Assembly: GCF_019393635.1 (NCBI RefSeq)
Contig: NC_057861.1
Location: 191,472,026-191,536,025, forward strand
Source: Dromiciops gliroides
Lineage: Eukaryota > Chordata > Mammalia > Microbiotheria > Microbiotheriidae
DNA: 64,000 nt
Reading direction: 5' to 3'
In this document: piece by piece, positions 29,354 through 31,039 of the stretch
Position numbering within the stretch: position 1 is the first letter of the stretch
How the letters are laid out: each line of letters begins with the position of its first letter
Program-made: the position numbers and the translations under genes
Notes under the pieces: model-generated
What the model was told of the DNA's origin: nothing
The model's input: only the letters and a program-made list of their open reading frames with translations
The model's database searches: none

Positions 29354-30234
29354 GTATAAAGTTAAAGACAACTGCATTAGTGAAGATTAATTTCGTGAGT
29401 GTAATAATTTATCATATACTTTATAGTAGTCCTTTAGTTTGCATATCTAATGTCACTTTTGAACTGTTGGCCAAAAAAACCCTCTTCAAAGACCTTTTTT
29501 TAAGCATATAACATATCCTGATAATTTGATTAAATTATAGAGATTTAAAGCAAATTAAGAGGACAAAAAGAAATCACACCAAATTAACTTCCCCTGTCTA
29601 ATCTGTGGAAAGGAAAAAAAAAAGCTTTCATATAATTTTTTCCCCAACTGATAACTGCCAAATAACGAGCATGAGTATAGCCATTGCTATATTAAAAGCT
29701 GTTAAAAAGCTGAAATCCAATGGATTTAATTTGTTTAATTGAATAGAGTCAGGAATAGCATCTAAGAAAAAAGGAATTAACTATGGTGTATTTTAATATG
29801 TGACTATAAACATTTAAACATTTCAAGGACTTAATCTTTTTAACAAAATTGTCTTGCCCAATTAATTGTATGAGACAAAATCTGTCTCTCTCTTTACACA
29901 TTCACATTTTAAGATATTTAAGTGTTGATTTCATTATGCCTTAGAATAAGTATTTTTATCCTCTATGGAAACTAATTTCCCAAATTGGAGTATAAGTTAG
30001 TGAGAAATTTTGTACACATGTTTTGAACACAAATATTCAAGAATTTGGTTTTGGATGTGAGGTAAAATTTGTTTTCAGCAAATATGTTTTTTTCCCCTGG
30101 TTTTGTATAAACTGTAAACAGCTTGTTGTACTTTCTAAGTTAAAGCAACAAGTAGGAAGAGTTGAAACAAAACAAAATGAAAAATGTTTGCATTGTTGAA
30201 AATGTTTGATGCTTGTTAATAAATAATGGGATTT

Positions 30235-30372
30235 GGGGTGGCTAGGTGGCACAGTGGATAAAGCACCTGCCCTGGAGTCAGGAGTACCTGGGTTCAAATC
30301 CGGCCTCAGACACTTGACACTTACTAGCTGTGTGACCCTGGGCAAGTCACTTAACCCCCATTGCCCCACAAA
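30235..30372 (+). repeat. Short marsupial SINE in the HSBP1L1 U12-type intron
   Basis: Full-length copy whose A-rich tail merges into the GAAT microsatellite that follows. Confidence 0.93.
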
Positions 30373-30421
30373 AATAAATGAATGAATGAATGAATGAATG
30401 AATGAATGAATGAATGAATGG
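30373..30421. repeat. (GAAT)n microsatellite
   Basis: About 11 GAAT units growing out of the SINE tail. Confidence 0.93.
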
Positions 30422-30484
30422 ATTCAGATCATACAGAACTAAGGATTTATTTTTGTAGTCCTTTATAAACATGAGATCATAGGC

Positions 30485-30715
30485 TTTTAGAGCGAAGGGA
30501 TTTTAAAGGTCATAAGGACCAGCCCCTTCAAGGCCTTGCCAGATTTCATCTCAGGCCTCAGTCTCCAAATCCAGCATTCTTTATAGTGTACCACAGTACC
30601 TACTTTAGAGTTAAGTTGGCATAGTATGTAGTGGCTTGGCCAGGAAGTTCTGAATTCAAATCCCTTCTCTGATACATATTAGCTCTGTCGACATGGGCAA
30701 ATCATTTAACATCCT
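30485..30715. repeat. Two MIR-type relics
   Basis: 30485-30600 reads reverse ('ggattttaaaggtcataagg…'); 30605-30715 reads forward ('tggccaggaagttctgaattcaaatccc…tgggcaaatcatttaac'). Confidence 0.5.
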
Positions 30716-31039
30716 TAATGATAGAATCACTTTTCTTTACATACTGAGGACTATAAATATGAATTTTTATTTTATCCTTGAAAAATATGTGCCAGCTCTC
30801 GTCCTTTTGACAAAAACATGAAATAATCTTCCATCCTACAGATAAATATTACAGATGTATTAATATACATCTCTGGATGTATCACCAAAATGTATGCACT
30901 TTGCATCAAAAATGTGCATACTAGGAAAGTTATATGGAAAGAAAGAAAATGGCCAGGAAAATTGATCATGAAAACATTTCTTATTCACTATGCAATTTGG
31001 GAGCAACCCTGTACATTCTTTTAAAGTATAAAAGGATAT

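What the first reader, a model, noticed from the sequence alone, without database searches (positions are those of the whole stretch)
29354..31039. HSBP1L1 carries a U12-type AT-AC intron
Exon 2 has no GT donor where the family alignment ends, but runs into ATATCCTTTT, and exon 3 starts after TCTTTAACTTTATAC. This is the minor-spliceosome AT-AC pair; joining A|TG restores the conserved Met and a gap-free alignment. AT-AC U12 introns are a rare class. A tiny gene dependent on them may respond to minor-spliceosome defects. It also lies next to TXNL4A, whose product belongs to the U5 particle used by both spliceosomes; that adjacency is probably coincidence.
Basis: partly seen in the sequence, partly recalled or inferred. 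Interest (0 to 1): 0.75.

Follow-up and report, generated by a model that had tools for sequence, protein, structure and literature searches.

The report
AT-AC minor intron in HSBP1L1
A tiny marsupial gene, HSBP1L1, carries the signals of one of the rare introns cut out by the cell's second ("minor") splicing machine, and protein records from birds, bats and an ape carry traces of the same intron; it is a sound but ordinary member of a known class.

Summary
On the minus strand HSBP1L1 has an intron at 31039..29354 (1686 nt, phase 1, A|TG) with a perfect U12-type donor ATATCCTTT, a near-perfect branch site TCTTTAACT (8 of 9) 8 nt before the exon, and an AC end. Of 3304 distinct proteins obtainable from all donor/acceptor pairs in the two open frames, the AT-AC join scores highest against a profile of other species' HSBP1L1 (123.6 bits); the best GT/GC-AG join scores 103.5 and inserts 23 residues. 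The joined product equals residues 1-69 of the Dromiciops gliroides record.

New evidence: 19 of 165 homologue records run past exon 2 and read N[IT]L[LF], the translation expected of A|ATATCCTTTT, in chimpanzee, two bats and 13 birds. Four bird records read FNFLLEEM on the 3' side, matching TTTAAC...C|TG. So an AT-type U12 intron at this place is probably shared by placentals, birds and marsupials. No RNA, and no DNA from those species, was seen.

It is a member of a known class. My paper searches found no statement of it, but MIDB/IAOD (not readable here) may list the human intron. TXNL4A adjacency is real (tail to tail) but looks coincidental; TXNL4A's coding introns are GT-AG.

The parts
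34084..34128 (-). HSBP1L1 exon 1, coding part (MADFDTPSARALSEF), followed by a GTAAGT donor (U2 type)
   Evidence: identical to residues 1-15 of P0001 (Dromiciops gliroides HSBP1L1)
31107..34083 (-). intron 1, GTAAGT..TTTTTCCCCCCAG, ordinary U2 type, phase 0
31040..31106 (-). HSBP1L1 exon 2 (67 nt), ends CTCAAAA
29354..31039 (-). U12-type AT-AC intron, 1686 nt, phase 1
31031..31039 (-). U12 5' splice site ATATCCTTT, 9 of 9 to RTATCCTTT
29360..29368 (-). U12 branch site TCTTTAACT, 8 of 9 to TCCTTAACT; 8 nt between branch A and exon 3
29259..29353 (-). HSBP1L1 exon 3 (95 nt), starts TGGAAG, ends CAAATG before GTAAGG
26198..29258 (-). intron 3, GTAAGG..TTTTCCCAAACAG, U2 type, phase 0 (3' end by best candidate)
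26192..26197 (-). probable start of exon 4: ATC TGA (Ile, stop), giving the 70-residue P0001; 1 of 7 AG|ATH-stop candidates in 14 kb, chosen by eye for its pyrimidine tract
529..14359 (+). neighbour TXNL4A, coding exons 529-681, 10090-10193 and 14188-14359 (stop included), intact 142-residue frame, convergent with HSBP1L1; both coding introns GT-AG
   Evidence: query sequence recalled

Best explanation
The intron at 31039..29354 on the minus strand is a genuine U12-dependent AT-AC intron of HSBP1L1, probably inherited from at least the common ancestor of birds and mammals. U11 and U6atac are expected to read ATATCCTTT and U12 to pair with TCTTTAAC. Removal joins A|TG into the Met of ..TLKMEEMGNRI.., in the middle of the HSBP1 domain. 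If it is not removed, translation runs on as ..TLKNILLYFKRMYRVAPKLHSE and stops at 30983-30981, losing the second half of the domain. Shown: the signals, coordinates, frame, family fit and run-through traces in other amniotes. Inferred: actual splicing by the minor spliceosome, conservation at the DNA level, and sensitivity of the gene to minor-spliceosome defects.
For: Exact consensus signals at the homology-dictated place. Top score of 3304 possible products, 123.6 bits against 103.5 for the best GT/GC-AG product, with a profile built from 66 non-Dromiciops proteins (those 66 were chosen by length 66-80 and by having a [KR][MV]EEM join, so the profile leans towards that join). Pfam's own HSBP1 profile, which carries no such choice of mine: 63.6 bits joined against 43.8 bits in two pieces for the best GT-AG form (typed forms without exon 1, and the GT-AG form typed there carries one residue more than the true product). 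The 69 residues from exons 1-3 equal residues 1-69 of P0001, Dromiciops HSBP1L1. 137 of 165 held homologue records carry a gap-free join with Met, Val, Thr or Leu at the split codon. 19 of 165 run past exon 2 as [KR]N[IT]L[LF], none as S[IV][LS], which a GTATCC donor would give; they are Pan troglodytes P0121, bats P0122 and P0124, 13 named birds, and 3 unnamed. 4 bird records (P0148, P0156, P0161, P0162) and cat P0110 translate the 3' intron end as FNFLLEEM or LLNIVLEEM, in the frame and spacing of the window's GTCTTTAACTTTATAC|TG. Control in the same records: run-through at the exon 3 donor reads V[RK] in 16 of 165, as an ordinary GTAAGR donor would.
Against: No RNA reads and no genomic DNA of any other vertebrate were available; the cross-species evidence is protein back-translation and is degenerate (NILF fits 72 codon strings, ATATCC being one reading). 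The branch-to-exon distance of 8 nt is short, though inside the range that published methods score (from 5 nt upward). Database gene models may have been built from one another by homology, so the 137 joins are not independent. Of 165 records, 9 fit neither the join nor the run-through pattern (P0030, P0039, P0092, P0108, P0110, P0123, P0132, P0145, P0148); P0110 and P0148 are read above as 3'-side traces and P0092 and P0145 as a possible second acceptor, the other 5 are left unexplained.
Confidence: 0.97

Rival explanations
1. A U2-type GT-AG intron with a longer exon 2: donor ATA|GTGAAT at 30988, acceptor AATGCAG| before 29371, giving an insert of 23 residues.
For: It is in frame, and both dinucleotides exist.
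Against: 20 bits worse than the AT-AC product and Pfam split in two pieces; the insert is absent from the 137 of 165 homologue records with the plain join; by eye the donor is weak and no good pyrimidine tract precedes the acceptor.
Confidence: 0.01
2. AT-AC ends processed by the major spliceosome (U2-type AT-AC).
For: Some AT-AC introns are spliced by the major spliceosome (PMC6717393, passage).
Against: Perfect ATATCCTTT donor and an 8-of-9 U12 branch site, with no pyrimidine tract before the AC by eye.
Confidence: 0.02
3. AT-AG use: same donor, acceptor at TGGAAG| (first exon base 29347), dropping two residues (..TLKKMGNRI), as an alternative beside the AC end.
For: Two records read LRKMG: Hylobates moloch P0092 and P0145, a 59-residue protein from a 1187-base contig of a source coded lgn. 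The window has the needed AG 6 nt downstream, and the product scores 106.0 bits.
Against: Only 2 of 165 records, and either may be a modelling artefact; the product scores 18 bits below the AC form.
Confidence: 0.1

Closest known systems
U12-type AT-AC (A-type, AT-AN) minor introns of vertebrates
   Same: ATATCCTTT donor, U12 branch site, AC end, phase 1, a single minor intron beside ordinary introns in the gene
   Different: Nothing essential; branch-to-exon distance at the short end, and a branch site with T for C at position 3, a variant also printed for Monodelphis RNF121 (TTTTCTTTAACC, PMC7367187, passage)
HSBP1 family (Pfam PF06825), HSBP1L1 branch
   Same: 63.6 bits over 44 of 51 profile positions; PDB 3ci9 HSBP1 aligns gap-free across the junction (E 0.00027)
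   Different: Whether the paralogue HSBP1 has the same intron class could not be tested

Membership tests
U12-type intron | 5' splice site RTATCCTTT | tested here: met
   0 mismatches
U12-type intron | branch site TCCTTAAC(T) within 5-40 nt of the 3' end | tested here: met
   TCTTTAACT, 1 mismatch, 8 nt between branch A and exon
U12-type intron | no pyrimidine-rich tract before the 3' splice site | tested here: met
   AATGCAGTTGTCTTTAACTTTATAC, judged by eye, no score computed
AT-AC subtype | AT..AC ends at the join required by the protein | tested here: met
   unique among 43 register shifts and top of 3304 products
U12-type intron | conserved position and class in related species | tested here: inconclusive
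   indirect support only: 19 of 165 records run through as N[IT]L on the 5' side and 5 of 165 on the 3' side; no DNA of another species seen
U12-type intron | splicing fails when U11/U12/U4atac/U6atac is disabled | not testable with these tools
   needs RNA
HSBP1 (PF06825) | score above the Pfam gathering cut-off | tested here: met
   63.6 bits against cut-off 28.6

The most novel reading that the evidence does not exclude
The HSBP1L1 AT-AC intron is a conserved switch in birds and mammals: when minor-spliceosome activity is low it stays in, and the transcript either decays or makes a short protein with half the domain (the chimpanzee record P0121, ..LNLRNILFYL, would be that form), tying a heat-shock-factor-binding relative to minor-spliceosome activity; a second 3' end (AC, or AG 6 nt later) adds a two-residue length choice in the coiled coil.
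Probability: 0.2. Interest if true: 0.5.

Novelty: new member of a known kind. Interest (0 to 1): 0.33.

Why it matters
It places an AT-AC intron firmly in a very small stress-related gene, and so offers a simple read-out for minor-spliceosome defects, in particular for CENATAC, whose depletion affected 92% of A-type introns (PMC8280824, passage). It also shows that some current gene models of birds and mammals go wrong at this junction (28 of the 165 records held lack the plain join, most of them drawn by a search aimed at short records): inserts or early ends exactly where an AT donor is not accepted. Such run-through residues (NIL..., then FNFLLEEM) are a cheap way to recognise AT-AC introns from protein databases alone.

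Tried and rejected
GT-AG and GC-AG alternatives were enumerated and rejected. Rfam found no family at gathering score in the window. HSBP1L1-like loci were sought in viral contigs and genome contigs to read intron DNA elsewhere; 58 and 72 pattern matches, none confirmed. The literature was searched for a prior statement: HSBP1L1 with U12, 0 papers; HSBP1L1 alone, 44 papers, 40 listed, none on minor splicing by title; HSBP1 with minor-intron terms, 98 papers hold at least 3 of 5 terms, the 25 listed have 0 mentions of HSBP1; HSBP1 with minor spliceosome, 1 paper, on intracerebral haemorrhage by its title; heat shock factor binding with U12-type, 0; HSBP1L1 with intron, 16 papers, 10 listed, none on intron class by title; HSBP1 with minor-spliceosome gene names, 43 papers hold at least 3 of 6 terms, the 8 listed have 0 mentions of HSBP1. 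Supplementary files and the MIDB, IAOD and U12DB web tables could not be read, so the human intron may well be listed there. No paper was read whole: passages of PMC2846911, PMC7367187, PMC8280824, PMC10639083 and PMC6717393 were seen.

Not resolved: whether HSBP1, the paralogue, has the same intron. The records P0030 (..LNVALEEM), P0039 (..LNTALEEM), P0108 (..VLNVVLEEM) and P0132 (..TITILLEEM) were looked at as possible reads of the 3' intron end, but without DNA they stay ambiguous and are not counted as evidence.

Full report
The window carries HSBP1L1 on the minus strand. Exon 1 codes MADFDTPSARALSEF at 34128..34084 and is followed by GTAAGT; exon 2 is 31106..31040; exon 3 is 29353..29259 and is followed by GTAAGG. 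The three exons give 69 residues identical to residues 1-69 of the 70-residue HSBP1L1 record of Dromiciops gliroides (P0001), which names the likely species. The last residue and stop (Ile, TGA) fit an AG|ATCTGA at 26197 behind a pyrimidine tract; it is one of 7 candidates in the 14 kb downstream of exon 3 and was chosen by eye.

Between exons 2 and 3 lies a 1686-nt intron, 31039..29354, that begins ATATCCTTTT and ends GTCTTTAACTTTATAC. The donor matches RTATCCTTT at 9 of 9 positions and the branch site matches TCCTTAACT at 8 of 9, with 8 nt between the branch A and the exon. The consensus is taken from PMC2846911 (passages only). The window holds 6 copies of ATATCCTTT on its two strands (20 Markov resamples: mean 2.0, range 0-5) and 26 AC ends with a branch site of at most one mismatch (mean 40.6), so the motifs by themselves are not telling; their weight comes from lying at the one place that the protein family requires.

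That place was tested in three ways. First, when donor and acceptor slide together by -21 to +21, no shift gives GT-AG or GC-AG, and AT-AC occurs only at shift 0. Second, every donor/acceptor pair in the two open frames was joined: 3304 distinct products were scored against a profile of 66 HSBP1L1 proteins from other species. The AT-AC product is first with 123.6 bits; the next, with other dinucleotides, have 121.1 and less; the best GT/GC-AG product has 103.5 bits and inserts 23 residues. A caution: the 66 were picked by length and by a [KR][MV]EEM join, so the profile favours that join. Third, Pfam's own HSBP1 profile gives 63.6 bits to the AT-AC join and 43.8 bits in two pieces to the GT-AG form (both typed without exon 1, and the GT-AG form as typed has one residue more than the true product). 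Human HSBP1 in PDB 3ci9 aligns across the join without a gap.

The cross-species test used protein records, since no vertebrate DNA beyond the window was available. A gene model that does not accept an AT donor must run on past exon 2. For a donor A|ATATCCTTT the run-on reads N-I-L-(F/L); for A|GTATCC it would read S-I-L. Of 165 homologue records held (120 listed of 200 hits, among them the 13; 45 more from the 62), 19 read [KR]N[IT]L[LF] right after exon 2 and none reads S[IV][LS]. All 19 came, a search designed to admit short or truncated records, so the share is not a frequency. Named sources are Pan troglodytes (P0121), the bats Pipistrellus nathusii and Molossus molossus (P0122, P0124) and 13 birds (P0138, P0151, P0152, P0154-P0163; P0155 reads NTLF and P0158 NILL); three are unnamed (P0140-P0142).

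On the 3' side, four bird records (P0148, P0156, P0161, P0162) read FNFLLEEMG and the cat record P0110 reads LLNIVLEEMG, in the same frame and spacing as the window's TTTAAC-TTT-ATA-C|TG (VFNFILEEMG). As a control in the same records, run-through at the exon 3 donor reads V[RK] in 16 of 165, as expected of an ordinary GTAAGR site. 137 of 165 records carry the plain gap-free join and 19 the run-through; 9 fit neither pattern (P0030, P0039, P0092, P0108, P0110, P0123, P0132, P0145, P0148). Of these 9, two are the 3'-side traces just named (P0110, P0148), two the possible second acceptor below (P0092, P0145), and five are unexplained.

These traces point to an AT-type U12 intron at this codon in placentals, birds and marsupials, hence probably in their common ancestor. 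They are translations, not DNA, and NILF can be coded in other ways, so the conservation is strong inference, not observation. Some homologue records come from contigs of about 0.9-1.9 kb (source code lgn, for example P0051, P0057, P0062), short enough to be spliced transcripts, but their origin is not stated and retrocopies are possible.

How it works: by established knowledge U11 and U6atac read the donor and U12 pairs with the branch site; the minor spliceosome joins A|TG. Retention in the window would give ..TLKNILLYFKRMYRVAPKLHSE and a stop at 30983-30981, cutting the HSBP1 domain in half; the chimpanzee record P0121 (..LNLRNILFYL) has that form. AT-AN minor introns have relatively high basal retention, and 92% of A-type introns were affected by depletion of CENATAC (PMC8280824, abstract and passages). 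HSBP1 has no mention in that paper's main text by the search count, so the dependence of HSBP1L1 is a prediction.

A possible second 3' end was noticed: the AG of TGGAAG, 6 nt into exon 3, used with the same donor, gives ..L[KR]KMGNR. Two of 165 records show it (P0092 Hylobates moloch; P0145, from a 1187-base contig). It may be a real AT-AG alternative or a modelling error.

Neighbourhood: TXNL4A lies on the plus strand with coding exons at 529-681, 10090-10193 and 14188-14359, an intact 142-residue frame, tail to tail with HSBP1L1 at about 12 kb between stop codons; both its coding introns are GT-AG (the query was recalled from memory). I regard the adjacency as chance.

Novelty: AT-AC introns make up 26% of human and 14% of opossum U12 introns (PMC7367187 Table 2, passage). 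The searches showed, by their listings, no paper that states the intron class of HSBP1L1; database tables and supplements could not be read, so the human intron may well be listed already. The finding is true, well placed and a member of a known kind.

Noticed in passing
29259-29290 (exon 3 end) and homologues P0008-P0012, P0014, P0015: Seven marsupial records (Sarcophilus and Antechinus two isoforms each, Sminthopsis, Petaurus, Macrotis) read NTK[NS][KT] near the end instead of NT[DN]KEQM, as if a small deletion shifted the frame near the end of exon 3; Petaurus shares this while Vombatus, Trichosurus and Phascolarctos do not, so it may be recurrent. The C-terminal tail seems free to vary.
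   Followed up: partly
29347-29353: In-frame AG 6 nt inside exon 3 (TGGAAG|AAATG) that two homologue records (P0092, P0145) appear to use with the AT donor (AT-AG).
   Followed up: partly
2864 (+), 59070 (+), 52955 (-), 52404 (-), 42978 (-): Five further exact ATATCCTTT strings in the window; 6 in all against a Markov mean of 2.0; not checked against exons.
   Followed up: no
about 30230-30420 (-): The U12 intron contains a run of ATTC repeats next to what looks like a tRNA-like SINE, with similar stretches near 28700-28860 and 28450-28600 (read by eye; the SINE label is recalled, from no call).
   Followed up: no
33683-33770 (-): Tandem ATCT repeat in intron 1.
   Followed up: no
34001-34500: The only one of 128 bins of 500 bases with CpG observed/expected above 0.5 (0.73, GC 0.56), over exon 1 of HSBP1L1; probably its promoter.
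   Followed up: no
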